Source of the DNA: Opitutaceae bacterium
Lineage (GTDB): Bacteria > Verrucomicrobiota > Verrucomicrobiia > Opitutales > Opitutaceae
DNA: 50,041 nucleotides
Direction of reading: 5' to 3'
NCBI GenBank assembly: GCA_016794625.1
Contig: JAEUGY010000108.1
Coordinates: 1-50,041, forward strand
Part shown: one piece after another, positions 8,785 to 47,687 of the stretch
Position numbering within the stretch: position 1 is the stretch's first letter
Layout: each line of letters starts with the position of its first letter
Notes under the pieces: generated by a model
Told to the model about the DNA's origin: nothing
Database searches by the model: none
Seen by the model: only the letters and a program-made list of their open reading frames with translations
Made by a program: the position numbers and the translations under genes

Positions 8785-9521
8785 TGAACCGAGAAGAAGC
8801 TCAATTCATCCTCGGTGCCTATCGTCCAAACGGCGCCGATGCCCATGATCCACAATTCCAGGACGCGCTTGCCCTCGCGCAACGTGACCCGGAGTTGGGC
8901 CGCTGGCTCGCTGAGCAGCAGGCTCTCGACCGTGCCTTCTCGGCCAAGATTCGTAGTCGTCCCTTGCCCGGCGATCTGAAGGCCCAGCTCCTGCTCGCCC
9001 GCACCACCGTCCGTCGTGGCGCGTGGTGGCGCAAGCCAGTCTGGCTGGCCACTGCCGCGTGTTTCGCCGTCCTGCTGGTGGCCGGTGGTCTGTTGTTGAG
9101 CGGACGCGGTCACACCGCCGAATTCGCCGCCTTTCGTGATGCGATGGCTGCCGCCTCGGCCGATATGGGCGATCATGCCGATGTCTGGGGCCTCGACACC
9201 GATGGCTACCGAAAGTGGTTGGCCAAGAACCGCGGCACGTCCGACTTTGTGCTTCCCGCATCGCTGGCCGACCGGGGCATCGCTGCTTGCAAGATCGTCG
9301 AGTGGCAGGGCCACCGCGTCACGATGCTCTGCCTGAAGTCCGGCGGCCAACACTTGGACCTGTTTGTCATCAACGCCTCCGAGTTGCCCGGCATTGCCCT
9401 GGGCTCGAAGCCGCTGCTTGTCGCCGACAGCGGTGCTACCACCGCCGCGTGGCAGCACAACGGAAACGTCTACTTGCTGGCCGGCACGATTCCGATGGAA
9501 GAGTTGCGGCAGTTGCTCTGA
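8784..9521 (+). CDS. Membrane anti-sigma factor-like protein
   Basis: 245 residues: cytoplasmic N-terminus about 1-85, one transmembrane helix about 88-108 (VWLATAACFAVLLVAGGLLL), and an extracytoplasmic domain of about 135 residues. The N-terminal part has no HxxxCxxC zinc motif, so it is not a standard zinc anti-sigma domain. The one-base overlap with the ECF sigma gene and the topology support a role as its partner; direct binding is inference. The external part (VWGLDTDGYRKWLAKN..., ACKIVEWQGHRVTMLCLKSGG) does not match a family I can name, and could be the sensor. Confidence 0.75.
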   Translation: MNREEAQFILGAYRPNGADAHDPQFQDALALAQRDPELGRWLAEQQALDRAFSAKIRSRPLPGDLKAQLLLARTTVRRGAWWRKPVWLATAACFAVLLVAGGLLLSGRGHTAEFAAFRDAMAAASADMGDHADVWGLDTDGYRKWLAKNRGTSDFVLPASLADRGIAACKIVEWQGHRVTMLCLKSGGQHLDLFVINASELPGIALGSKPLLVADSGATTAAWQHNGNVYLLAGTIPMEELRQLL

Positions 9522-9795
9522 CCCTGCCGATCCAGAACCGCGGTCGCCAGATACTCGCGGACGATGACGTATCTGCGCTCGTGCGGGTCGACCCAATGGG
9601 GTCAAACCGTTTGACGTTTTGAGCTGGGTCGGATGTTCGGACGAGGGATCATGCCATTGCCGCGGCGCACCTTGTCGAAATCTTCAGCGCCGAGTGCGAA
9701 CGGCGTCGAGCCGATCCCAAGAGCGTTTCTCTGCCAACCGTGCACCTTTCTCGAATCGAACCGTAGTAACACCCTGAACCAGGGCTCGACCCCGC
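9522..9795. other. Intergenic region between convergent genes
   Basis: 274 bases between the anti-sigma-like gene and the 3' end of the binding-protein gene. I see no gene. It contains a short perfect inverted repeat, GTCAAAC-C-GTTTGAC at 9601-9615, followed by GTTTT; the one-base spacer makes a normal hairpin poor, so it could be a protein site or a weak terminator. Confidence 0.4.
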
Positions 9796-10758
9796 TCAGC
9801 GCTGAATGCGTGGCGTGTAGACAAAGGCTTCAAGGTCGACCCGCCGTTCAAGGAAGCGGTGCTCCACGAAAACAGATTGGCACGCCTCCCACTCCTGGCG
9901 GGTCATCAACGGCATGATGGAAGAGGCCGGGGTCGGCTGGACGAGGGGCGCGATCTGGCCAAGCGATGCGAGTTGGTAGGCGCGGTCGAGCTTGGGGTTC
10001 CACGTCTTGAGTATCAGATCGATCGTGGCCTCCGGGTGCGCGAGGGCAAACGCCCAGCCGCGTCGGCAGGCGGCGAGGAAGCGCTCCACGAGCGCGGGGT
10101 GCGCTGCGAGGGTGGCTTCCGTGACAAAGAGCACCTGGGAAGGGGCGAGGTAGCCATGGTCCTTGGCGTGGATGAAGTCGCTCTGCCCCGGCGCGCGCAG
10201 CTTGAGGGCGACGTTCTCATCCAGCGAATACCCCTGCATGAGATCGACGGTCCCCTCGAGCAGGACGCGTGGATCGTAACCGACCTCGGTCATGACCACG
10301 TCCTTCAGCGTGAGTCCGACACGAGCCAGGGCAACGGCCAAGACCTTCTCCCCGTCATGGTGGATGCCCACTTTGCGGCCGCGGAAGTCCGCGGCGGTCC
10401 GAATGCCGCTTTTCTTCAGGACCATCCAACCCATCGGGCTGGAGTGAAACATCGGGGCGAGAGCGACCACGGGCCGGCCCTTCTGGCGCTCCAGCAACAG
10501 GACATTGCTCTCCGACACCCCAAACGCCAACCCCGTCGCTGCAACCACCGATTCCACGACTCCCGCGCTTTTCGGCGATTCCTTCAGGTCAACGGCAAAA
10601 CCCGCTTCTGCAAAGTACCCCTGCTCCACCGCTTGGTAGAGGCCGGCGAACTGTGCGTTGAAGATCCAGTCCAGCTGGACCCTGACCGGCACGGCTTCAC
10701 GGGCCGTGAGGACCGAACTCAGCCAAAACAGGCACGCAAGACAAAGGAAGTGACGCAT
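9796..10758 (-). CDS. NMT1/THI5-like ABC transporter substrate-binding protein
   Basis: 320 residues from ATG 10758 (MRHFLCLACLFWLSS, a good signal peptide); an upstream ATG at 10785 would add nine residues. The chain shows the family pattern: VRVQLDWIFNAQFAGLYQAVEQGYFAEAGFAVDL, then FRGRKVGIHHDG, VDLMQGYSLDEN and a long helical C-terminus (HPALVERFLAACRRGWAFALAHPEATIDLIL). These periplasmic proteins bind pyrimidine precursors of thiamine, taurine, alkanesulfonates or related ligands. No permease or ATPase gene is adjacent, so it is an orphan here. No thiamine riboswitch pattern is visible upstream. Ligand unknown. Confidence 0.85.
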   Translation of the reverse strand: MRHFLCLACLFWLSSVLTAREAVPVRVQLDWIFNAQFAGLYQAVEQGYFAEAGFAVDLKESPKSAGVVESVVAATGLAFGVSESNVLLLERQKGRPVVALAPMFHSSPMGWMVLKKSGIRTAADFRGRKVGIHHDGEKVLAVALARVGLTLKDVVMTEVGYDPRVLLEGTVDLMQGYSLDENVALKLRAPGQSDFIHAKDHGYLAPSQVLFVTEATLAAHPALVERFLAACRRGWAFALAHPEATIDLILKTWNPKLDRAYQLASLGQIAPLVQPTPASSIMPLMTRQEWEACQSVFVEHRFLERRVDLEAFVYTPRIQR

Positions 10759-26775: not shown

Positions 26776-26820
26776 CCCTCCCCCTTTCTCCTTTACATTC
26801 CAAAAGCCCCCCCAATCTCC

Positions 26821-26902
26821 GTCATTCGTCATTCGTCATTCGTCATTCGTCATTCGTCATTCGTCATTCGTCATTCGTCATTCGTCATTCGTCATTCGTC
26901 AT
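26821..26902 (+). repeat. 7-bp tandem repeat (GTCATTC), about 11.7 copies
   Basis: Bases 26821-26902 are perfect tandem copies of GTCATTC, filling most of the 125-base gap between the thioredoxin gene and the ThuA gene. The array runs into the ATG start codon at 26901, so the normal ribosome-binding position consists only of repeat units and has no Shine-Dalgarno sequence. As 7 is not a multiple of 3, a change in copy number would shift any frame reading through it, and would alter the spacing of upstream signals. Confidence 0.97.
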
Positions 26903-27899
26903 GCTCCTTCGATCCTTTCTCCCGCGCCTGCTCGCCGCCGCCCTGCTCACCGCCTGCCTGCACCACCCGGCCATGGCGGCCGCTGACGCGCCGAAAAAGG
27001 TCCTGTTCTTCAGCAAGTCCTCCAACTTCGAGCACTCGGTCATCAAGCGGTTCAACGGACAGCCGAGCTGGGTCGAAAACGTGCTTTCGGAACAGGGTCC
27101 GCGGCGCGGCATCGACTTTGTCTTTTCCAAGGACGGCAGTCTTTTCACCGCGGAGTACCTGGCCCAGTTCGACGGATTCATGTTCTATACGAGCGGCGAA
27201 CTGACCGCAGTGGGTCGCGACGGCAATCCGCCGATGACTCCGGCAGGCAAGGCCGCCTTCCTCGACGCCATTTACAAGGGCAAGGGCTTCGTGGGGGTGC
27301 ACTCGGCCGGCGACACGTTTCACACCGGCGAAACCGCCGCGACGGTGACGAGTCAGGCCCGCACCTGGCGGTACAAACACCATGGCGACCAAGCCGACCC
27401 CTACATCCGCATGCTCGGGGGCGAATTGATCGTGCATGGCACGCAGCAGATCGCGAAGTCGCGGGTGGTCGATCCGGGATTCCCCGGTTTCGCCTACCTG
27501 GGAGCGACCTTTCCGATGATGGAGGAGTGGTACTCCATGACCGACTTCTCCCCTGACATGCATGTCATCCTCGTTCTGGAAACCGCTTCGATGCGGGATC
27601 CCAACGCCGGCCCCAACTGGCCGCCTCCCGGCGGCTATATTCCGTATCAGCGTCCCGACTATCCCACGACCTGGGCCCGCATGCATGGCGAGGGACGAGT
27701 CTTCTACACCGCCATCGGGCATCGGGAGGACACGTGGACGAATCCGATTTTCCACGACATGCTTTTTGGCGGGCTCGCCTGGTCCGTGCGCAAGGCGGAG
27801 GCGGCCGTCACGCCCAACCTCAAACAGGTAGCCCCCGGAGCCTACGAGCTCCCGCCGGTCTCCGCCCCCGTGGGCGGCCTCCCGCCGGTGAAGAAGTAA
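26901..27899 (+). CDS. ThuA-domain (trehalose utilisation-like) exported protein
   Basis: 332 residues. MLLRSFLPRLLAAALLTACLHHPAMAA is a signal peptide; LTACLH could also serve as a lipobox. The ThuA-like glutamine-amidotransferase fold follows: KKVLFFSKSSNFEHSVI, YLAQFDGFMFYTSGEL, GKGFVGVHSAGDTFH, and GRVFYTAIGHREDTW. ThuA-like proteins in Verrucomicrobia often accompany DUF1080 glycoside-active proteins and act in carbohydrate metabolism, with no firmly known reaction. ATG 26901 is at the end of the GTCATTC array; the frame is open further upstream through the array, but that would encode RHSSFVI repeats before the leader, which is implausible. Confidence 0.85.
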   Translation: MLLRSFLPRLLAAALLTACLHHPAMAAADAPKKVLFFSKSSNFEHSVIKRFNGQPSWVENVLSEQGPRRGIDFVFSKDGSLFTAEYLAQFDGFMFYTSGELTAVGRDGNPPMTPAGKAAFLDAIYKGKGFVGVHSAGDTFHTGETAATVTSQARTWRYKHHGDQADPYIRMLGGELIVHGTQQIAKSRVVDPGFPGFAYLGATFPMMEEWYSMTDFSPDMHVILVLETASMRDPNAGPNWPPPGGYIPYQRPDYPTTWARMHGEGRVFYTAIGHREDTWTNPIFHDMLFGGLAWSVRKAEAAVTPNLKQVAPGAYELPPVSAPVGGLPPVKK

Positions 27900-28964: not shown

Positions 28965-31472
28965 TCAGTCCCCGCGCGCCTTCAACTGCTTGGCCCCGCG
29001 GGCCACAATCTCAGGATCGACGTTGATCCCGGCCTTGGCGAGAGAGGCATCGAGGATCACTTCGCCCGGCAGGTAGCCGATGACGATGTCGACCACCTTG
29101 CCACTGCGATCGATGATGAACTGCGTGGGAATGCCGCGCACCCCGTAGAGTTTGTTCGAAGCGCGATCCGCACCGCGCTCCGCCTTGTCATGGGTCCAGA
29201 GGATGTCGGGATACTTGGCGGCGTTGGCCTTGACCCACGACTCGAACTTGGTGCGCACATCGTTGGTGCAGGAGCCGAGGACCACCACGCCCTGATCCTT
29301 GTACTGGGCGGCCACCTGCTGGGTGTGCGGCATGGCCGCCATGCAGGGACCGCACCACGTGGCCCAAAAGTCGAGGATGACGACCTTGCCCTTGAAGTCG
29401 GAGAGCTTCACGTCCTTGCCGTCGAGAGTCTGGGTAGTGAAATCCGGTGCCATCGCGCCGACCTTGAGCTCCTGACCACGCGGCTCGGGTGCCTTGGGTT
29501 TGGTTTCCTCGGCCGTCCACACCTTCTTCGGCTGGTCGGCCGCCGCCAGTTCGAGCCCGGCGCGGAGGAAGAGGTTGCCCAAGCCTTCGGAGTATTGGTC
29601 GCCAAATCCGGGGATCCAGCCCACCATCCGGCCCGCGGCGTCGATCACCACGGTGGAAGGCACCGGAGGCATGACACCCGCGGTCTTCACGGTGAAGAGG
29701 TTGTCGTAGTGGTTGCGAGATGCCTTGCGGAATTCAGCTTTTTCGTCGTCGGTCATCTCCTCCATCGTCTTGTCCGGCCGCGGCGGCCGGCCCGTGGGAT
29801 CGGCGAAGAGGGGGAAATTCACCTTCGACTGATTGGCAGTCAGCCACTCCTGGGTTTCGGCGAGGGTGGCGAAGCCACTCAGGCCGATAAAGGCGACACC
29901 GGGGTAGCGGGCGCTCCACGACTTCCACGCCGCGAGGTAGGCGTCGCCCGGCCCGTTGGCCCCGCTCCAGATGCCGATCACGGTCAGCTTGCCGGGGGCT
30001 AGAGTGGAATATTTGACCGGCGAACCGTCAAGTTTGAGCAGGTCTCCGTCCACCATCGGATCGCCCGGTTTGAGTTTGCCGAAGCCTTCATAAAACGGCG
30101 CGCGCGGAATCGCGGCCGCGGCGGCGCGTTCCTTTTCCTCCGCCTCCGCCTGGGCGATCTGGGCTTTGCCCTTGGCCACGGTGGCCGCATCCACGGTGAC
30201 GCCGGCCGCCGCCAGCGCCGCCTCGGTGCGGGCGTCGTCGGCGCCGCCATTGCCGACGACCACGCTGACGATCTTCCCATCCCGGCCGATGATGAACTGA
30301 GTCGGGATGCCGGAGACGCCGTAGAGACGGTTGGAGGCGCGCGCCTCGAACGTGGCCCCGCCGCGTTCGTTCGGGTCAAATGCCCAGATCAGACCGGGGT
30401 ATTTTGGCGCGTTGACGGGTATCCATTTCTTAAAGGCGGCAACGGTGTCGCTCGTGCCCGAAGCCAGCACCACCACGCCCTGATCCTGATAGCGGGTCGC
30501 GATCTTCGAGGTGTGCGGGAACGAGGCGATGCAGGGGCCGCACCACGTGGCCCAGAAGTCGAGGATCACCACCTTGCCCTTGAAGTCGGAGAGTTTCACC
30601 TCGGCGCCGTCCACGGTGAGCGCCGTGAAGTCGGGCGCCACCGCGCCGGCGGCGAGCGTCGCCTTGCGCACGGCGGGCGCGGCCGCTCCACCGGCGGGCG
30701 CGGCAACGGTGGCCGCGGCCATCATACCGCCCGCGGCCATCGCCGGAGCCGGCTTGGCGGCAGGCGCGGACGCTGGCGCCGATGCACTGGCCGCCGCAGC
30801 CGCAGCCGGAGCGGCGGCGGCGTTGGCCTTGGGACGTGGCGTGGGCTCCGGGGGCAGGTGCGCGGTGGGAATGGAGAGTCCGGCCTTCGCGAGCAGACGG
30901 GTGACCGCAGGATTTTCCTTATCGCCACCGCCGCCGGCGCGGCCGACGACGCGACCGTCGCGGCCCACCACAAAAATGCTGGGGAACATGGAGGCGCCCC
31001 AGTTATTCCGGAACACGGAGTTGGCAAAGTCCTTGCCCGCGCTGTCGTGGGCGGTGGTGAACTTGAACGCCGCCCCCGTGCGCTTCACCCAGGCGTCATA
31101 GTTTTCGCGGGTATCCGAGGCACAGACGGCCAGCACCACGAGCCCTTCGGCCGCGTAGGTTTCCGCCATTTTGCTGTTGTGCGGCATGGCCGCGATGCAG
31201 GGGCCGCACCAGGTCGCCCAGATGTCGAGCAGCACGATCTTGCCGCGGTAATCGGAGAGTTTCACGTCGGCGCCATCGGGGCCCTGAACCGTGAAATCAG
31301 GGGCCAGATCACCCGGCTTCGGACCCGTAGGCATGCGTTTCACCGCGCCTGCCGCCGGAGGGGTGGCCGCGGCGCTGGCAGGCGTTGGCGCGGTCGCCGG
31401 ATCAGCGGCCTGCGAGGATGCCACCCACGACAGACCGAGCGCGGCAGACAAAAGGAGAAGGGACGATTTCAT
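28965..31472 (-). CDS. Exported protein with four tandem thioredoxin-like domains
   Basis: 835 residues from ATG 31472 (MKSSLLLLSAALGLSWVASSQAA). Domain 1 about 52-205 (WCGPC at 88-92), an Ala/Pro-rich linker about 205-270, domain 2 about 270-430 (WCGPC 310-314), a charged linker, domain 3 about 466-645 in which the active site reads WSGANGPG (502-509) with no cysteine, and domain 4 about 668-830 (WCGPC 706-710). Each keeps the cis-proline segment (FPSIFV, IPTQFI, VPSTVV, IPTQFI). Domains 2 and 4 are very alike, suggesting internal duplication. TlpA proteins normally have one such domain. It probably works in the periplasm as a multi-site disulfide reductase (inference). Confidence 0.9.
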   Translation of the reverse strand: MKSSLLLLSAALGLSWVASSQAADPATAPTPASAAATPPAAGAVKRMPTGPKPGDLAPDFTVQGPDGADVKLSDYRGKIVLLDIWATWCGPCIAAMPHNSKMAETYAAEGLVVLAVCASDTRENYDAWVKRTGAAFKFTTAHDSAGKDFANSVFRNNWGASMFPSIFVVGRDGRVVGRAGGGGDKENPAVTRLLAKAGLSIPTAHLPPEPTPRPKANAAAAPAAAAAASASAPASAPAAKPAPAMAAGGMMAAATVAAPAGGAAAPAVRKATLAAGAVAPDFTALTVDGAEVKLSDFKGKVVILDFWATWCGPCIASFPHTSKIATRYQDQGVVVLASGTSDTVAAFKKWIPVNAPKYPGLIWAFDPNERGGATFEARASNRLYGVSGIPTQFIIGRDGKIVSVVVGNGGADDARTEAALAAAGVTVDAATVAKGKAQIAQAEAEEKERAAAAAIPRAPFYEGFGKLKPGDPMVDGDLLKLDGSPVKYSTLAPGKLTVIGIWSGANGPGDAYLAAWKSWSARYPGVAFIGLSGFATLAETQEWLTANQSKVNFPLFADPTGRPPRPDKTMEEMTDDEKAEFRKASRNHYDNLFTVKTAGVMPPVPSTVVIDAAGRMVGWIPGFGDQYSEGLGNLFLRAGLELAAADQPKKVWTAEETKPKAPEPRGQELKVGAMAPDFTTQTLDGKDVKLSDFKGKVVILDFWATWCGPCMAAMPHTQQVAAQYKDQGVVVLGSCTNDVRTKFESWVKANAAKYPDILWTHDKAERGADRASNKLYGVRGIPTQFIIDRSGKVVDIVIGYLPGEVILDASLAKAGINVDPEIVARGAKQLKARGD

Positions 31473-31722
31473 GGAGGAGAAGGATTCGCGCGGCACGGGG
31501 CCTGGCGGGCCGGATGCGCGGCCTGACCTGAACCCATCCGACCGCCCCTCCGGGGAGGAACCACACTGGCGGACGGAAAAAGGGCCGCAAGGTGTTTAAC
31601 ATGCGGCAGCTGGGGAAACCTCGTTTGGGCAATCGTGCCTATCCCGAGGCCAGGCTCGGACCCTCCTACAGAGGCGGACGCGCCGGCGCCGCAGCCGCCC
31701 CGGTTCTGCTCCGGTAGAGGGC
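31473..31722. other. Intergenic region upstream of the four-thioredoxin gene
   Basis: 250 bases upstream of ATG 31472, followed by the composite repeat at 31723. It should carry the promoter of the four-thioredoxin gene on the minus strand. I see no gene, RNA or convincing promoter boxes; short open frames on both strands are GC-rich artefacts. Confidence 0.4.
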
Positions 31723-31900
31723 GGAGGCGGTACCGAGGGTCCCGTCGCGGCCTCAGCGAGGCCACCTCCAACGGGAACCGCAGGGTGCTATCCTGGAGGG
31801 CGCCGCTCCGTCGGCGCCGGGTGCGCGTCGCGTGCACCCAAACGGCCGGGCGTGGAGATTCGTGGGACCGTCCCCGTGGCGTCGACGGAGCGACGCCCTC
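31723..31900 (-). repeat. Composite REP/BIME-like element (copy B)
   Basis: Read on the minus strand, it begins with a 106-bp unit (31900-31795) bounded by inverted copies of GGAG plus a 20-nt hairpin. The hairpins are GGCGTCG-CTCCGT-CGACGCC and GGCGCCG-ACGGAG-CGGCGCC, whose loops are complementary. Next comes GGAG + GTGGCCTC-GCT-GAGGCCGC, then an inverted GGGACC/GGTACC hairpin closed by CTCC. It matches copy A at 46669-46910 in order and in about 85% of bases over the 106-bp unit. Its left end supplies two bases of the stop codon of the gene ending at 31899. Confidence 0.88.
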
Positions 31901-32408
31901 ACTTCCAATAGGCCGGCACAAACACATAGGCTCCCGCACGCTGTTCCCAATGCGCAGCCACATAGGTGGTCGCAGCGGGGGGAGGGACTTCCCAGCGTCC
32001 TTTCAACCAGCTGTAACCGCGACCGTCCCAGGACCAATAGCCGGGAATCCAGATCGCGTGGGGCGACGGAGCCGCGGTGATCGGTCCTTCCGCCTGCGGG
32101 GGCGGCGGGGCCGGAGGCTCGGGCATGGTGCGGTGGCGCGGGGGCGGCTGGGACCCATAAATCGTGCCTTCGCGGTGATCAACGCCATTGCCAATGGCCC
32201 CGCCCGTCACCGCACCTGCCACCCCGCCGATGATCGCGCCGCCGAGGGCATCTCCCCCGCGGCTGTTGTGCCCGATCACCGCTCCGGCGATCGCACCCAA
32301 CGTACCTCCAACGACCGCACCTTGCTCGGTGCGGGGACCGGAACCGACGCAGCCGGTGAACAGAGTCGCCAACGCGGCTCCGGAAGCGAGAATGAGCGAT
32401 TTATTCAT
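31899..32408 (-). CDS. Glycine-zipper lipoprotein with YXWGXW-like C-terminus
   Basis: 169 residues. Leader MNKSLILASGAALATLFTGC with lipobox FTGC (Cys20). A glycine-rich segment about 30-80 (GAVVGGTLGAIAGAVIGHNSRGGDALGGAIIGGVAGAVTGGAIGNG) forms two glycine-zipper hairpins, as in Rick_17kDa/OmpA-like lipoproteins. The C-terminus about 115-169 holds aromatic repeats (WIPGYWSWDGRGYSWLKGRWEVPP ... HWEQRAGAYVFVPAYWK) of the YXWGXW type. It is anchored in the envelope; role unknown, perhaps stress-related. The next gene upstream (32548-33060) encodes another small exported protein on the same strand. Confidence 0.82.
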   Translation of the reverse strand: MNKSLILASGAALATLFTGCVGSGPRTEQGAVVGGTLGAIAGAVIGHNSRGGDALGGAIIGGVAGAVTGGAIGNGVDHREGTIYGSQPPPRHRTMPEPPAPPPPQAEGPITAAPSPHAIWIPGYWSWDGRGYSWLKGRWEVPPPAATTYVAAHWEQRAGAYVFVPAYWK

Positions 32409-39922: not shown

Positions 39923-39974
39923 CCGTTGGAGGTGGCCTCGCTGAGGCCGCGACGGGACCCACCGGTCCCGCCTC
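39923..39974 (+). repeat. REP-like palindrome with inverted tail (copy C)
   Basis: CCGTT-GGAG followed by the hairpin GTGGCCTC-GCT-GAGGCCGC, then GACGGGACCCACCGGTCCCGCCTC, which is a second hairpin in inverted orientation. The same two-hairpin arrangement occurs at the right-hand end of the composite elements at 31723 and 46910. Confidence 0.85.
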
Positions 39975-40006
39975 TGACGTTCCTTGGTTGCCGCGATGCC
40001 AATCCT

Positions 40007-40034
40007 CGCGGCCTCGGCGAGGCCACCTCCAACA
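40007..40034 (-). repeat. REP-like palindrome (copy D)
   Basis: On the minus strand this reads TTGGAG + GTGGCCTC-GCC-GAGGCCGC, the same GGAG-footed palindrome as copy C, 30 bases away and facing it. Together they form an inverted pair. Confidence 0.85.
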
Positions 40035-40100
40035 GAAGTTTTCCGCCGTGGTTTTAGGGCGTCCTCGGGGAGGCCGCCTACCTACCTGAGACCCGAAGGG

Positions 40101-43480: not shown

Positions 43481-46423
43481 ATGACCATCAGACAACTCGG
43501 TAAGCCAACGACCCTGGCTTCGATCCTCGGGGTCCTGACCTCGATTCCCCTGGCGCTCGCCCAATCCGTCACTCCACCGGCCTCCGCGCTCAAACCCGAG
43601 CAGGACATCAAACTGGAGAAGTTCGTTGTGACCGGTTCGCTGATCAAGCGCATCGCCGGCGAAAGCGCCCTGCCGGTGCAGACGATCACGATCGAAGAGA
43701 TCGAGCAGCAAGGCATCACCAGCGCCGAGCAGCTCATCAGCACGATGAACATCAACGGCAACGGCCTGGACAACCTCGCCAGCAATGCCGACGTCGTCTC
43801 CGGCGCCGCCCGCGGCAATAACGGCGCCACCTCCGCGAACCTCCGCGGCCAGGGTGCCGGCGCGACCCTCGTGCTGCTGAACGGCCGCCGCGTCGCCTCG
43901 CACGGCCTGAACGGCGGCGTGGTCGACCTGAACTCGATCCCCTTCGCGGCGATCGAACGCGTCGAAACCCTCAAGGACGGCGCCTCCGCCATCTACGGCA
44001 CCGACGCGGTCGGCGGCGTGATCAATTTCATCCTCAAGACGAACTACCAGGGCGTGACCTTGAGCGGCGCGACCGACATCACGGAGGACGGCGGCGGCAA
44101 CATCCACCGCTTCTCCCTGCTCGCCGGCATCGGCGACCTCGAAAAGGACAAGTTCAATGTCATGACCTCGCTCGCCGTGTCCGACCACAAGGTCCTCCGC
44201 GGCGACCAGCGTGACTTTGTGAATACGTTCCAGCCGGATCGCGGCCTTTCCGTCGACACCCGCGGCACGCCCATCGCCACGATCTTCCCGCTGACGACGC
44301 TCTACACGGCGATCAGTCGCGACAACATCGACAACACCGGCCGCGGCACCGGCCCGGCCGACCCGCAGAATCCCACGGTGCGCATGAGCGGCGGCATCAA
44401 CATTGTCGACCTGCCCGGCGGCGTGGGCTACGCCGGACTCGACGGCATGGGGCCCTACGATGAACTGCTCTGGGCCACGCCCACGGCCAAGTATGCATCG
44501 GCCTGGGACACCGGACGCGCCGCCGTGCTGCAGCAACCCGTGCGCAATTCCAACCTCGTCACCCGGGGCACGGTCAAACTCGGCGAACACCGCCTGATCG
44601 GCGAAGCCGTCATCGGCCGTTCCGAGTCGATGAAAAGCTTCTCCGCGAATCAGATCACCAGCGCCGTCGGCACCTCCAACATCAGCCTGCCCAACGGCAC
44701 GGTCGTGCCGAATCCCTTCCGCAATCTCGCCTACCCGAGCACCGGAGCGGACTACAACCGCGTCTTCAACGCCCTGCTCGCCTACTTCCCCGCCATCGCG
44801 CCCAACCGAGGCCAGCCGCTCGCCTTCCGCTGGCGCGCCACCCCGGCCGGCAATCGCGAGATCGAGACGCGAAGCGACACGCAGCGGTTCCTCGTCGGTC
44901 TGGAAGGCCCCCTCACGTTCCTCGACAACTGGGACTACCGCCTTGGCGTGACCCGGGCGGAGAGCAAGAGCAAGTCGAAGCTCGTCAATGGTTACTTCTA
45001 CACCCAGGGCTTCGCCAATCTCATCAACACCGGCGTGCTCAATCCGTTCTCCTACACGCAGACGCCCGATGCCCTCGCGGCGCTGGACAAGGTCAGGGCC
45101 AATGGCGTTGAACTCTACGGCGGCACCTTCACCTCGGAGAACGCCGACTTCACCGCCTCCGGTCCGCTCTTCCAGCTGCCGGCGGGAGAAATGGTCGGCG
45201 CGGTGGGAATCGACTGGCGCGTGGAAAAATATTTCTTCGCCGGCGACCAGCGTCCGAATGCCAACACCATTGAAGCCGTCGTCTTCAATGCACCCTTCGA
45301 CAACGCCCTCGCCACCGCGGGCACGCTCAAGCGCACGATCAAGTCCGCCTTCGCCGAGGTACAGATCCCGCTCCTCAAGGGGCTTGATCTGAATCCCGCC
45401 GTGCGTCTGGACGAATACACGGGTTTCGGCCGGACGACCAACCCCAAGGTCACACTCCGCTACGCGCCCTCCGACAAATTCCTGGTGCGCAGCACCTACA
45501 GCACCGGTTTCCGCGTGCCGACCTTCAAGCAGATGTTCGACCCGACCACGCGGTCGACCTATGCCGGCAATGACTTCCCCGATCCCGCACTGGGCACCAA
45601 CGGCGTGATCACCCCCACGGCTCCGGCGGTCAAACCCGACATCCTGGGCGGCGGCAAAGCCGACCTGCAGCCCGAAGAAGCCGTCATGTACTCGGCCGGC
45701 GTGGTGTTCGCGCCCAACAAGAACATCAGCGGCAACATCGACTGGTGGTCGGTCGAGCGCGACGGGCAGGTGCAGATCCTCAGTCTCACCCAGCTCGCCC
45801 GCAACTACGACCTGTTCAAGGACCGCTTCCTGCGCGACACCGCGGGCAATCTGCTCGCCGTCGACACCCGCTGGCTCAACAGCGGCGAGACCGTCACCAA
45901 GGGCCTGGAATTCGGCCTGCGTGGCGACACCGACGCCCTCAAGGGCAAGATCTCCGGTGGGTTCGACCTCTCCTACCTGCTGGAGAAGAAGTCGCGCCTG
46001 CTCGCCAACGCTCCGTTTGGTCCAAGCGAGGTGGGCCAATGGACGCGCTCCAACGATCTCGGTATCCGGATCAAGCACACCGCCTTCATCAGTTACCGCA
46101 AGGGCAACTGGACCGGCATGGTGCACCAGATCTACCGCGGCGGCTACGTGGACCAGGTCCTCCCGGGTGTCGCCAACGGCACGATCAAGCCCGTCAATTG
46201 GAACCCCAAGGTGGACGCCTACCAGACGTATAACCTGAGCGTCACCTATCGCGGCATCAAAAACATCACGATCATCGCGGGCATCAAAAACATCCTCAAC
46301 ACGGACCCGCCCTTCTCCGTCGCCTACGACAGCAACTCCGGCGCCGGCAGCAGCTGGGAGCCCCGGGTCGCCGATCCCCGCGGCCGCTCGTTCTCCCTGC
46401 GCGTGGACTACCGCTTCCGCTAG
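43481..46423 (+). CDS. TonB-dependent outer-membrane receptor
   Basis: 980 residues from ATG 43481 (MTIRQLGKPTTLASILGVLTSIPLALAQ signal peptide). A TonB-box-like LEKFVVTGS is followed by the plug (SALPVQTITIEEIEQQGITSAEQLISTMN; ATLVLLNGRRVASHGL; IERVETLKDGASAIYGTDAVGGVINFILK) and a barrel ending in LRVDYRFR*. The NGR-R and GASAIYG..AVGGVINIIL motifs place it with the oar/iron-type receptors that accept large or complexed substrates. A candidate sigma-54 promoter lies upstream and a terminator downstream, so it is probably monocistronic. The substrate is unknown; no neighbouring uptake genes are nearby. Confidence 0.93.
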   Translation: MTIRQLGKPTTLASILGVLTSIPLALAQSVTPPASALKPEQDIKLEKFVVTGSLIKRIAGESALPVQTITIEEIEQQGITSAEQLISTMNINGNGLDNLASNADVVSGAARGNNGATSANLRGQGAGATLVLLNGRRVASHGLNGGVVDLNSIPFAAIERVETLKDGASAIYGTDAVGGVINFILKTNYQGVTLSGATDITEDGGGNIHRFSLLAGIGDLEKDKFNVMTSLAVSDHKVLRGDQRDFVNTFQPDRGLSVDTRGTPIATIFPLTTLYTAISRDNIDNTGRGTGPADPQNPTVRMSGGINIVDLPGGVGYAGLDGMGPYDELLWATPTAKYASAWDTGRAAVLQQPVRNSNLVTRGTVKLGEHRLIGEAVIGRSESMKSFSANQITSAVGTSNISLPNGTVVPNPFRNLAYPSTGADYNRVFNALLAYFPAIAPNRGQPLAFRWRATPAGNREIETRSDTQRFLVGLEGPLTFLDNWDYRLGVTRAESKSKSKLVNGYFYTQGFANLINTGVLNPFSYTQTPDALAALDKVRANGVELYGGTFTSENADFTASGPLFQLPAGEMVGAVGIDWRVEKYFFAGDQRPNANTIEAVVFNAPFDNALATAGTLKRTIKSAFAEVQIPLLKGLDLNPAVRLDEYTGFGRTTNPKVTLRYAPSDKFLVRSTYSTGFRVPTFKQMFDPTTRSTYAGNDFPDPALGTNGVITPTAPAVKPDILGGGKADLQPEEAVMYSAGVVFAPNKNISGNIDWWSVERDGQVQILSLTQLARNYDLFKDRFLRDTAGNLLAVDTRWLNSGETVTKGLEFGLRGDTDALKGKISGGFDLSYLLEKKSRLLANAPFGPSEVGQWTRSNDLGIRIKHTAFISYRKGNWTGMVHQIYRGGYVDQVLPGVANGTIKPVNWNPKVDAYQTYNLSVTYRGIKNITIIAGIKNILNTDPPFSVAYDSNSGAGSSWEPRVADPRGRSFSLRVDYRFR

Positions 46424-46452
46424 TCCGTCCACCCCCCGTCCCTCCCCCACCC

Positions 46453-46487
46453 GCCCCTCCGCCGCCCGCCGGCCGAGGGGCTTTTTC
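46453..46487 (+). terminator. Rho-independent terminator after the second TonB receptor
   Basis: GCCCCTC at about 46452-46458 pairs with GAGGGGC at 46475-46481 (7 bp, extended by partial GC pairing around a 16-base loop), followed directly by TTTTTC. It lies 29 bases after the receptor stop codon. The loop is rather large, but the T-tract is good. Confidence 0.7.
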
Positions 46488-46526
46488 TTGTCCGCGCCCC
46501 ACCTCCAAAACGCCCCTCTGCCCCCT

Positions 46527-46556
46527 CCGTTGGAGGTGGCCTCGCTGAGGCCGCGT
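46527..46556 (+). repeat. REP-like palindrome (first of the island)
   Basis: CCGTT-GGAG + GTGGCCTC-GCT-GAGGCCGC. It is 61 bases from an identical unit at 46588. The intervening 35 bases carry a smaller hairpin (ACACCC-TTCA-GGGTGC). Confidence 0.88.
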
Positions 46557-46587
46557 GTTTCGCACCAGCACACCCTTCAGGGTGCGC

Positions 46588-46617
46588 CCGTTGGAGGTGG
46601 CCTCGCTGAGGCCGCAT
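46588..46617 (+). repeat. REP-like palindrome (second of the island)
   Basis: Same 26-base GGAG-footed palindrome as at 46527, 61 bases on. The spacer before it resembles the spacer at 46829-46858, so palindrome plus spacer has been duplicated as a unit. Confidence 0.88.
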
Positions 46618-46668
46618 GGCTTTTTGGAGGCTCCCCACGACCTCTGTGGAATGGGATTGGCCTCAGGT

Positions 46669-46910
46669 GGAGGGCGTCGCTCCGTCGACGCCGCGGGGAC
46701 GGTCCACATATTTCCGCGCCAGACCGTTTTGGGAAACGCGACGCGCAACCGGCGCCGACGGAGCGGCGCCCTCCAGGAGAGAACCCTGCAGGTGCCCGTT
46801 GTTGTAGGCGGCCTCGCCGAGGCCGCATTTTTCGCACCACCACGCCCTGGAGGTGCGCCCGTTGGAGGTGGCCTCGCCGAGGCCGCGACGGGACCCTCGG
46901 TCCCGCCTCC
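46669..46910 (+). repeat. Composite REP/BIME-like element (copy A)
   Basis: Bases 46669-46774 are the 106-bp unit: GGAG + GGCGTCG-CTCCGT-CGACGCC at the left, and the inverted partner GGCGCCG-ACGGAG-CGGCGCC + CTCC at the right. Two palindromes follow, at 46796 with the foot GTAG + GCGGCCTC-GCC-GAGGCCGC, and at 46859 with GGAG. The element ends with GACGGGACC-CTC-GGTCCCGCCTCC, an inverted hairpin with its own GGAG foot on the other strand. The order matches copy B at 31723-31900, apart from one extra palindrome unit. Confidence 0.9.
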
Positions 46911-47126
46911 GCCTTCCGCACAGCTCCGACCGACGATCATCTGATGTCCTCCGACCCTTCACGGCCACCGTTCTTTCAAACGAGAAGCAGTTACCCCCTG
47001 AAACCGGAACTTCAGCCGAGCTGGAAATGTGAGGGATCGTTGTAATCCAGTCCTCCTTGCACGCAGTGGAGCTACGGATACTCAAACCGCGGACCCTGTT
47101 GTCTCATCAACCCTCTGCATTCCAGC
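46911..47126. other. Upstream region of the NTF2-like gene
   Basis: 216 bases between the repeat island and ATG 47127, presumably with the promoter of the next gene. I see no clear -35/-10 boxes, RNA or repeat. Short open frames here are artefacts of GC-rich DNA. Confidence 0.4.
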
Positions 47127-47687
47127 ATGAAAACCCGTTACACCTCCCTGCTCCTCGCCCTGCTTTCACTGGGGGCCAGCCAAGTCTTCGCCGCGGCCAA
47201 AGGCGGACCGCCCCCGATCACCGTCGAACAATTGCACGCCGCTAAACAGGCATGGTGCGACGCCCTTCTGCTCATCAGCAAGACCAACCGCACGGGCGGC
47301 GATGCCCGCGCCGTGGCCGAGAAGGTCATCGACGGGGCCTACAACTACGCGGCCGCGCCGGTGCTCTTCAAACCCACCCTGGCGTATGGCAAGAACACAT
47401 TCCGCACCACCCGAGAGAGCGCGTTGACCTACTTCGTCGGCAACAACCCGAAGTTCCCGGAGGACTCCGGCTTTGCACTCAAGCCCTGGACGGAAGCATC
47501 CTTCAAAATCGCGGGGACCTATATCGAAGGCCCGATTGGCATCACCATGGGCCACGTGACGCTCACCGACAACGCGGGCAAGCAGACCACCGTGGAAAAG
47601 ACGTTCGTCTTCCGCCACGGGGATGACGGCAAACTGCGCATCGTGCTGCACAAGTCTGCCATCCCCTACGCTCCGGCGAAGACCTGA
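47127..47687 (+). CDS. Exported NTF2/SnoaL-like protein
   Basis: 186 residues. Signal peptide MKTRYTSLLLALLSLGASQVFA. The mature part (AKQAWCDALLLISKTNRTGGDARAVAEKVIDGAYNYAAAPVLFKPTL ... SALTYFVGNNPKFPEDSGFALKPWTEASFKIAGTYIEGPIGITMGHVTLTDNAGKQTTVEKTFVFRHGDDGKLRIVLHKSAIPY) matches an exported family that, as I recall, databases sometimes label phosphoribosyl-AMP cyclohydrolase, though it has none of that enzyme's zinc-binding cysteine motifs and looks like a cone-shaped NTF2 fold. The true role is unknown. It precedes a hairpin shared with the convergent HDOD gene. Confidence 0.75.
   Translation: MKTRYTSLLLALLSLGASQVFAAAKGGPPPITVEQLHAAKQAWCDALLLISKTNRTGGDARAVAEKVIDGAYNYAAAPVLFKPTLAYGKNTFRTTRESALTYFVGNNPKFPEDSGFALKPWTEASFKIAGTYIEGPIGITMGHVTLTDNAGKQTTVEKTFVFRHGDDGKLRIVLHKSAIPYAPAKT

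What the first reader, a model, noticed from the sequence alone, without database searches (positions are those of the whole stretch)
46669..46910. GGAG/GTAG-footed inverted palindromes with the architecture of RAYT-mobilised REP/BIME elements
Several palindromes in the window each carry GGAG, or once GTAG (46796 unit), just 5' of a 19-20-nt hairpin, and they occur in inverted pairs: 46669/46774, 31795/31900 and the GGCCTC/GGGACC pair. GGAG/GTAG feet plus paired inverted hairpins are the hallmark of REP sequences mobilised by RAYT (IS200/IS605-related) transposases in other phyla. The two hairpins of the 106-bp unit have complementary six-base loops (CTCCGT, ACGGAG), so they could kiss in RNA or single-stranded DNA. 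I do not know of a description of this set in Verrucomicrobiota.
Basis: partly seen in the sequence, partly recalled or inferred. Interest (0 to 1): 0.75.

Follow-up and report, generated by a model that had tools for sequence, protein, structure and literature searches.

The report
GGAG-footed REP hairpins with RAYT transposase
These short hairpins are repeats present in hundreds of copies that a single-strand transposase probably copies around this Verrucomicrobial genome; repeats of this kind were already known in a relative, but here their usual GTAG tag has mostly become GGAG, alongside changes in the part of the enzyme expected to read it.

Summary
The palindromes are real, far beyond chance, and present in hundreds of copies. 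They are REP elements of two types. A/D has an 8-bp stem, 3-nt loop and GGAG or GTAG foot; B has a 7-bp stem, CTCCGT loop and GGAG foot. An intact RAYT gene (NF047646, 107.8 bits, cut-off 80) lies between A/D pairs on contig C67 of the same genome. B is the REP of a second RAYT clade, seen in three same-genus genomes but not found in this assembly. The third palindrome (GGGACC) keeps no foot genome-wide. GTAG REPs in Opitutus terrae were published in 2013, so the kind is not new. The variant may be: on the same D hairpin a relative (probably O. terrae) has GTAG at 31 of 32 sites, GGAG at 0; here GGAG is 82 of 100 listed. Among 148 RAYTs (66 without a readable foot) motif YFDR goes with GGAG (11 of 11) and FFDH with GTAG (52 of 53). 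The changed residues align with E. coli TnpA_REP F98 and H101, and the own RAYT appears to have gained them separately. Only about two independent changes support the link; exceptions exist; mobility and specificity are inferred.

The parts
46532..46554 (+). A-type REP, foot GGAG, stem 8 bp, loop GCT
46593..46615 (+). A-type REP, foot GGAG
46669..46692 (+). B1 hairpin (GGCGTCG-CTCCGT-CGACGCC), foot GGAG; left half of the 106-nt feet-outward B pair
46693..46750 (.). spacer of the B pair, recognisably conserved between copies
   Evidence: 52 matches, 46 of them (self included) over the whole 106 nt or nearly, the others at 83-92% identity
46751..46774 (-). B2 hairpin (GGCGCCG-CTCCGT-CGGCGCC), foot GGAG
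46804..46826 (+).
46864..46886 (+). A-type REP, foot GGAG, joined to hairpin C
46890..46910 (-). C hairpin (GGGACC); partner of A in a compact pair; foot GGAG here but not kept genome-wide
31723..31743 (+). C hairpin of an inverted C-A pair
31749..31769 (-). A-type REP, foot GGAG
31795..31818 (+). B2 hairpin, foot GGAG
31878..31901 (-). B1 hairpin with altered foot TGAG, reaching the 3' end of the ORF 31899-32408(-)
39928..39950 (+). A-type REP, foot GGAG; feet-outward pair with the next
40010..40030 (-). A-type REP, foot GGAG
40061..40081 (-). degenerate A-type REP, foot GTAG, 2 mismatches

Best explanation
The palindromes are REP elements of two RAYT-linked systems, sitting in composite, BIME-like arrays between genes. 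System alpha is hairpins A and D (8-bp stem, loop GCN, foot GGAG or GTAG). Its RAYT is the 161-aa HUH/Y1 protein on contig C67, itself framed by D/A pairs. System beta is hairpins B1/B2 (7-bp stem, loop CTCCGT, foot GGAG), paired feet-outward in a 106-nt unit; its RAYT clade (motif xWD then T, R or V) occurs in congeners. Proposed mechanism (inferred from E. coli, S. maltophilia and Marinomonas TnpA_REP): the RAYT binds the single-stranded hairpin, uses the foot as a guide to choose a CT cleavage site, and moves a pair of REPs as a single-stranded unit into intergenic DNA. In the alpha system foot base 2 has mostly changed from T to G, together with F98Y and H101R (E. coli numbering) in the foot-reading segment of the RAYT. 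A3 and G4, thought to select the CT site, are kept, so cleavage at CT should survive the change. Shown here: copy number, fixed feet, pairing geometry, RAYT framed by REPs, foot/motif association. Inferred: cleavage, movement, and that these two residues read base 2.
For: Copies and controls. Feet left free. Intact 161-aa ORF, HVH motif, NF047646 107.8 bits (cut-off 80); only solved relative found is TnpA_REP 4er8, E 9.4e-10. D and A' hairpins on both sides of the RAYT, 9 of 9 with GGAG. GTAG hairpins on both sides of the RAYT in 45 of the 67 loci (of 81) that have 400 bp on each side; next-best tag GTTG 10, others 0-2. GTAG at 162 of 454 hairpin-strands near RAYTs against 28 of 767 far away, foot not preset. 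Beta RAYTs: 7 of 11 distinct loci printed have GGAG hairpins with loop CTCCGT, 6 of them on both sides. Spacings (A-D feet-out 61-62 nt in 23 of 31; B-B 57-58 nt in 14 pairs). Foot change on one hairpin core: D in G012 31 GTAG of 32, in G000 82 GGAG of 100 listed of 104 (Fisher 5e-18). Foot against motif. Own RAYT placed with GTAG-type Opitutales RAYTs, YFDR needing at least two origins. Different array at one orthologous site. Foot/cleavage model: PMC8266576 (passages).
Against: The C67 RAYT is flanked by the GGAGCT variant of A plus D, not by the commonest A (GGAGGT, GTAGGC). GTAG feet persist in 31 of 89 sampled A copies, so one enzyme may not explain both. No beta RAYT was found in G000 or G001, and no close alpha RAYT in G001 (best 34%), which has 249 A copies. 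R at position 101 alone is not enough: two FFDR RAYTs have GTAG. One YFDH RAYT (L203, 2 hairpins) has GGAG and another (L207) GTAG. About 2 independent changes of foot, 1 on starred branches, so no phylogenetic significance. 66 of 148 RAYTs had no readable foot. The AU test against one YFDR clade is marginal, p 0.043, and the group was named after a first tree. Four of the 11 beta loci printed have other loops. The guide model worked for Marinomonas Mb only; attempts to redirect cleavage by foot changes failed for E. coli and S. maltophilia, and the latter barely cut GCAG (PMC8266576, passages). No cleavage or movement was observed.
Confidence: 0.82

Rival explanations
1. The GGAG feet and the YFDR motif are each inherited in a few lineages and their association is phylogenetic coincidence; foot base 2 is loosely read and drifts.
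For: About two independent changes of foot. FFDR with GTAG and YFDH with either foot. In S. maltophilia TnpA_REP, foot mutants still bind, and in Marinomonas Mb only the last two foot positions are strongly selected with a CT site (PMC8266576, passages).
Against: The own RAYT has Y and R together, apart from the other 12 YFDR RAYTs, while its REPs share the hairpin core of its sisters and differ in the foot. H101 is named with the foot-interacting residues of E. coli TnpA_REP in PMC6006769 (passages).
Confidence: 0.4
2. The mix of GGAG and GTAG feet reflects two alpha RAYTs with different specificity, one of them lost or unassembled; the arrays are a mosaic of both.
For: Foot and stem base are linked (GGAG mostly with GT, GTAG with GC). 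Inverted A/D pairs within 70 nt are mostly same-foot: 46 of 55 (not tested against chance, which is high because GGAG prevails). The assembly has 127 contigs and some REPs lie at contig ends.
Against: No second alpha RAYT found in the genome at the cut-offs used; 9 of 55 pairs mix feet.
Confidence: 0.4
3. The elements are not mobile; they are transcription terminators or mRNA-stabilising hairpins kept by selection downstream of genes.
For: All three window clusters lie between genes, the stems are strong, and REPs are said to act on RNA (PMC3733652, passages).
Against: A foot kept outside the stem; fixed multi-hairpin units; a different REP family at the orthologous site in G001 (with the caveat that the right flank did not match); RAYT framed by the same hairpins. 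No Rfam match at E<=1 in 46400-47150. A secondary role is not excluded; position relative to genes was not measured genome-wide.
Confidence: 0.07
4. The 106-nt B unit is a classical MITE of a DDE transposase rather than a REP pair.
For: Near-fixed length and conserved spacer.
Against: In relatives B-like hairpins with the same GGAG foot and loop frame Y1 RAYT genes. Target-site duplications were not examined.
Confidence: 0.05

Closest known systems
GTAG REP families of Opitutus terrae (GTAG-17, -19, -20; Di Nocera et al. 2013, PMC3733652)
   Same: Foot plus short hairpin, dimers with 1-2 bp spacing, high abundance, and probably the same order of bacteria. A genome whose size (5,957,605 bp) I recall as that of O. 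terrae PB90-1 (G012, unnamed handle) carries the A-like and D hairpin cores with GTAG feet.
   Different: Here GGAG prevails.
Group 3 TnpA_REP / REP systems (S. maltophilia REPtron Sm; PMC8266576, passages)
   Same: 16-nt perfect palindrome broken by a 3-nt loop starting with G, foot directly at the stem, D at E. coli position 100.
   Different: Foot GGAG in the majority; Y at 98 and R at 101 in the own RAYT.
E. coli REP/BIME with TnpA_REP (4er8)
   Same: HUH/Y1 protein, foot + hairpin, RAYT framed by inverted REP pairs, mosaic arrays.
   Different: E. coli REPs have a bulged stem and accept no foot change (PMC8266576, passages).
Pseudomonas REPs (Table 1 of Nunvar et al. 2010, PMC2817692, passage)
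   Same: Several read TGTGGGAG-CGGGC, so the letters GGAG also stand next to a stem there.
   Different: The field reads that foot as GTGG/GTAG two bases off the stem; here GGAG is in register with GTAG on the same hairpin, directly at the stem.
IS200/IS605 elements
   Same: Same enzyme superfamily and single-strand hairpin recognition.
   Different: NF033573 scores only 28.9 bits (cut-off 55). No terminal cargo element was sought.

Membership tests
REP element (GTAG-type) | Short hairpin, 20-40 nt, in high copy | tested here: met
   A 434, B-type 330, D 104 copies, reversed controls 0
REP element (GTAG-type) | Conserved tetranucleotide just 5' of the hairpin | tested here: met
   A 85/89, B 58/62, D 27/28 GGAG or GTAG with foot left free. 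C fails: 8/23
REP element (GTAG-type) | Tetranucleotide is GT[AG]G, as in the search rule of PMC6006769 | tested here: not met
   Majority GGAG: A 54/89, B 58/62, D 23/28. I therefore file it as a variant
BIME/REPIN | REPs in alternating orientation at regular spacing | tested here: met
   A-D feet-out 61-62 nt in 23 of 31, B-B 57-58 nt in 14 pairs (others 54-135), A-C 5 nt between matches in 30
REP element (GTAG-type) | Mostly intergenic | tested here: inconclusive
   3 of 3 window clusters lie between genes, one touching an ORF's 3' end; not measured genome-wide
RAYT / TnpA_REP | HUH + Y1 catalytic motifs and RAYT family score | tested here: met
   HVH and YIQHNPV present; NF047646 107.8 bits, cut-off 80
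RAYT / TnpA_REP | Gene framed by REPs that also occur dispersed | tested here: met
   D and A' hairpins on both sides of the C67 gene; dispersed copies
RAYT / TnpA_REP | Cleaves cognate single-stranded REP at a foot-selected dinucleotide | not testable with these tools
   needs protein and oligonucleotides
RAYT / TnpA_REP | Fold like 4er8 | not tested
   sequence match only (E 9.4e-10); prediction machine busy

The most novel reading that the evidence does not exclude
A natural specificity switch in the REP/RAYT system. Two residues in the foot-reading segment (E. coli F98 and H101 to Y and R) turn a GTAG-reading RAYT into a GGAG-reading one. The switch happened at least twice, and in this genome it was followed by conversion of most of the dispersed A/D population to the new foot on an unchanged hairpin core, with the GTAG copies as the remnant.
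Probability: 0.45. Interest if true: 0.72.

Novelty: new variant of a known kind. Interest (0 to 1): 0.58.

Why it matters
How a RAYT and its REPs stay matched, and how a dispersed population of hundreds of copies can change its recognition tag, is to my knowledge not settled. This genome and its relatives offer matched pairs: the same hairpin core with GTAG in one species and GGAG in another, and RAYTs that differ at two identifiable positions. That gives a direct binding and cleavage test, and perhaps a way to predict feet from RAYT sequence. It also suggests that automatic REP searches restricted to GT[AG]G miss whole populations, among them those of the second (beta) RAYT clade, where 11 of 12 readable feet are GGAG (23 unreadable).

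Tried and rejected
Considered and rejected: (a) kissing loops as a special feature: two inverted copies of any hairpin have complementary loops. (b) One palindrome family: A/D and B belong to different RAYT clades. (c) GGGACC (C) as a REP in its own right: foot kept in 8 of 23. (d) The three long Y1 proteins L001, L003, L004 as the cognate RAYTs: NF047646 below cut-off (48.4-51.1 bits) and no A, B or C hairpin in the 3.2-kb loci (L003 has one loose, chance-like match to the generic B pattern); in wider stretches L062 and L183 hold none, L182 one D-A pair about 6 kb from the L004 gene. (e) The C65 Y1 protein as cognate: it is framed by another hairpin (E, GTAG foot). (f) R at position 101 alone as determinant: my first reading after (H in 68 of 68 GTAG loci, R in 4 of 4 GGAG loci). 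The second set weakened it. Its raw tally (83 loci): H with GTAG 21, GATG 1, GTGG 1, GAGG 1, unclear 10; R with GGAG 12, GTAG 2, GCGG 1, GTGG 1, unclear 5; T with GGAG 6, GAGG 2, GCGG 1, unclear 14; V unclear 1; 4 loci without motif. By reading, L203 (YFDH) has GGAG.

Rows dropped: 10 loci without a recognised RAYT motif (L104, L105, L110, L113, L140, L174, L251, L256, L261, L263), L208 and L213 as repeats of G012 and own, and 13 identical sequences (166 to 153). In some searches, three rows with a wrong motif hit; also L272 and L075 (long branches); three feet were set by reading (L203, L207, L195). One search used 73 of 150 rows. Most of the 21 own-genome stretches were chosen because they hold REPs, so they say nothing about density. 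Loci were gathered by similarity to the own RAYT and to L177, a GGAG-type RAYT, so foot frequencies are not those of all RAYTs. In one search only 40 of 271 first-look candidates were scored. One search was meant to show the feet of A in G001, but leading N are ignored; the 7 A copies in fetched G001 loci read GGAG 4, GTAG 1, CTAG 1, GGAA 1.

Led nowhere: Rfam; structure prediction (not completed). Messing 2012, Bertels 2017 and Ton-Hoang 2012 are not held, so which foot base residue 101 touches was not read. PMC3116915, PMC3686654 and PMC8049555 appeared in listings and were not opened.

Full report
WHAT IS THERE. The window is one contig (C126) of a 6.45-Mb, 127-contig genome. Its nearest named RAYT relatives are mostly Opitutaceae/Opitutia, so I take the host to be in the order Opitutales (inference). 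In the window three clusters of palindromes lie at 31723-31901, 39928-40081 and 46532-46910. All three are between genes, the first touching an ORF's 3' end: a triple redoxin-domain protein and a WXXGXW protein; a BNR-repeat protein and an HDOD protein; a TonB-dependent receptor and an unassigned 186-aa ORF. Shuffles give 0.00 and 0.09 matches where 4 and 8 are found.

ANATOMY. Hairpin A is GKAG-GYGGCCTC-GCY-GAGGCCGC: foot, 8-bp stem, 3-nt loop. Folded alone as single-stranded DNA, its foot is unpaired. Hairpin D, absent from this window, is GKAG-GYGGGGTC-GCN-GACCCCGC. Hairpin B is GGAG-GGCGNCG-CTCCGT-CGNCGCC and forms a 106-nt pair with feet outward, one arm GGCGTCG and the other GGCGCCG, joined by a conserved spacer of 57-59 nt. 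Hairpin C (GGGACC) almost abuts A: 5 nt between the pattern matches, 1-3 nt between the stems depending on which end pairs are counted. Genome counts: A 434, D 104, B-type 330; reversed-pattern controls 0. With the foot left free in 24 sampled stretches: A 54 GGAG, 31 GTAG, 4 other of 89; D 23, 4, 1 of 28; B 58 GGAG of 62; C only 8 GGAG of 23. Spacings are regular: A-D feet outward at 61-62 nt in 23 of 31, A-B at 26 nt (10 pairs), A-C at 5 nt (30 pairs). A hairpin census that presupposed no foot (766 distinct hairpins in 400,867 bases, 10 of them seen four or more times) returns variants of A, B, C and D, plus one other (CACCGC, 6 copies) without such a foot.

THE RAYT. PF01797 finds four Y1 genes in the genome. 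One, on C67, is 161 aa, with HVH and YIQHNPV motifs; it passes the NCBIfam RAYT model at 107.8 bits against 80 (the query lacked the start Met), and its only solved relative found is E. coli TnpA_REP, 4er8. It is framed by D and A' (GGAGCT) hairpins in units of about 124-129 bp on both sides, 9 of 9 with GGAG feet. The other three are 333-345 aa, score below the RAYT cut-off and have no A, B or C in their 3.2-kb loci. A weaker relative on C65 is framed by a different, GTAG-footed hairpin, E.

FAMILY-WIDE FEET. A scan of named genomes gave 80 RAYT loci, the best of 141. With no foot preset, GTAG stands at 162 of 454 hairpin-strands within 400 bp of these genes against 28 of 767 further away; GGAG shows no enrichment (17 of 454 against 30 of 767). 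With the own locus added, GTAG hairpins are on both sides in 45 of the 67 loci with enough sequence, GGAG in 2 (one of them ours), GTGG 2, GTTG 10, GAAG 2, GTCG 1, GCAG and CTAG 0. So GTAG is the rule among these RAYTs and the window's genome is an exception.

TWO RAYT CLADES. A second search in 288 genomes of the phylum and 53 fetched stretches gave 83 loci, partly the same as before. They exposed a second clade with motif xWD then T, R or V. Seven of the 11 distinct beta loci printed have GGAG hairpins with the loop CTCCGT, the window's B type, six of them on both sides; the other four have other loops. L219 and L236 carry the very stem GGCGCCG. The clade is one side of a branch with support 100/98 (10 rows; 35 rows, 100 by SH-aLRT). 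Congeners G002, G008 and G009 have such RAYTs, and B-type REPs number 16, 179 and 87 there; G005 has 118 without a detected beta RAYT; G001 has 148; G003 and G012 have 0. G000 and G001 gave no such RAYT; in a fragmented assembly with REP-framed genes that is weak evidence of absence.

FOOT AGAINST ENZYME. The alignment to 4er8 puts own residues Y107 and R110 (counting the start Met) on E. coli F98 and H101, in the segment W94-R104 discussed as foot-interacting in PMC6006769 (passages read; it notes that H101 is sometimes R, without naming a consequence in what I read). In 148 RAYTs: FFDH with GTAG 52, GTGG 1, unclear 37; FFDR with GTAG 2; YFDR with GGAG 11 (one by reading), unclear 2; YFDH with GGAG 1 and GTAG 1 (both by reading); TFDH with GATG 1, GTGG 1, unclear 1; xWD with GGAG 11, GAGG 1, unclear 23; other motifs unclear 3. 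The own RAYT is placed among Opitutales FFDH RAYTs and not with the other 12 YFDR (0 of 200 bootstrap trees have YFDR as one side of a branch; AU p 0.043; the immediate branch has modest support, 86/68). Those sister RAYTs carry GTAG on the same inner hairpins (GGCCTC-GCT-GAGGCC in L102, GGGGTC-GCT-GACCCC in L101-L104). Counted genome-wide with the foot free as GNNG, the D core has GTAG in 31 and GCAG in 1 of 32 sites in G012, and in our genome GGAG 82, GTAG 17, GTCG 1 in the 100 listed of 104; the 18 listed of 158 in G001 are all GGAG. The tree allows only about two independent foot changes, one on starred branches, so the association cannot reach significance by independent pairs.

TURNOVER. 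The TonB-receptor gene left of the 46.5-kb cluster is 85% identical in G001 up to window base 46500. There the match ends. The 1.5 kb held beyond it in G001 contains none of A, B, C or D; it has two E-type hairpins with GTAG feet by pattern and further variants by eye. The right flank did not match, so a rearrangement at this point is not excluded; gain or replacement of arrays after the two species parted is the simpler reading.

MECHANISM. By the model tested on Marinomonas Mb, A3 and G4 of the foot select a CT cleavage site, and T2 and G4 a CA site; for E. coli and S. maltophilia redirecting cleavage by foot changes failed (PMC8266576, passages read). GGAG keeps A3 and G4. I therefore expect CT cleavage to be kept and the CA option lost, and the enzyme to have adapted its contact with base 2. 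The A loop (GCY) and 16-nt palindrome match the format of the S. maltophilia REP studied there, whose first loop base G scored high in SELEX. Cleavage, movement and base reading are inferred.

KNOWN OR NEW. REPs with GTAG feet in Verrucomicrobia, and Opitutus terrae as highly enriched in them, are in PMC3733652 (passages and one section read). That paper lists foot variants GYAG, GYRG, GTRG, GTMG and GTGG; PMC6006769 used GT[AG]G for its automatic search (passages). Table 1 of PMC2817692 (passage) shows Pseudomonas REPs in which the letters GGAG also adjoin the stem, read there as GTGG or GTAG further out. GGAG feet in register with GTAG, and a link to residues 98/101, did not turn up in my searches, which cover open-licence papers only and were seen mostly as listings. 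I file the find as a new variant of a known kind.

Noticed in passing
L181:9249-10200 (G000:C65 ~98.2-99.2 kb): A third REP-like hairpin, E (GTAG-N-GGAACGCG-GAA-CGCGTTTC), frames another Y1 gene (ORF 9415-10170) in the same genome; 11 copies in 24 sampled stretches, 7 with GTAG one base before the stem.
   Followed up: partly
L289 (G001:C212), after position 2597: At the site orthologous to window base 46500 the congener carries GTAG E-type hairpins and none of A, B, C or D.
   Followed up: partly
L001:727-1764(-), L003:1456-2457(+), L004:1447-2457(+): Three related 333-345-aa Y1 proteins with no A, B or C REP in their 3.2-kb loci; a longer Y1 class of unknown ends.
   Followed up: no
window 26806-26930: Tandem repeat of a 7-nt unit (CGTCATT) in about a dozen copies.
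   Followed up: no
L203, L202, L204: RAYTs branching next to the YFDR clade have feet GGAG (L203), GTAG/GTCG/GTGG (L202) and GTGG (L204) on near-identical hairpins (GCGGGGTG-NNNN-CACCCCGC), a possible series of intermediate steps.
   Followed up: partly
window 28965-31496: An 843-aa protein with three redoxin/thioredoxin-like domains in tandem, seen as DNA repeats D1 and D5.
   Followed up: no
G000 contigs C24, C25, C50, C53, C59: REPs lie within 250 bp of contig ends, so the assembly may break at REP arrays and RAYT genes inside arrays may be missing.
   Followed up: no
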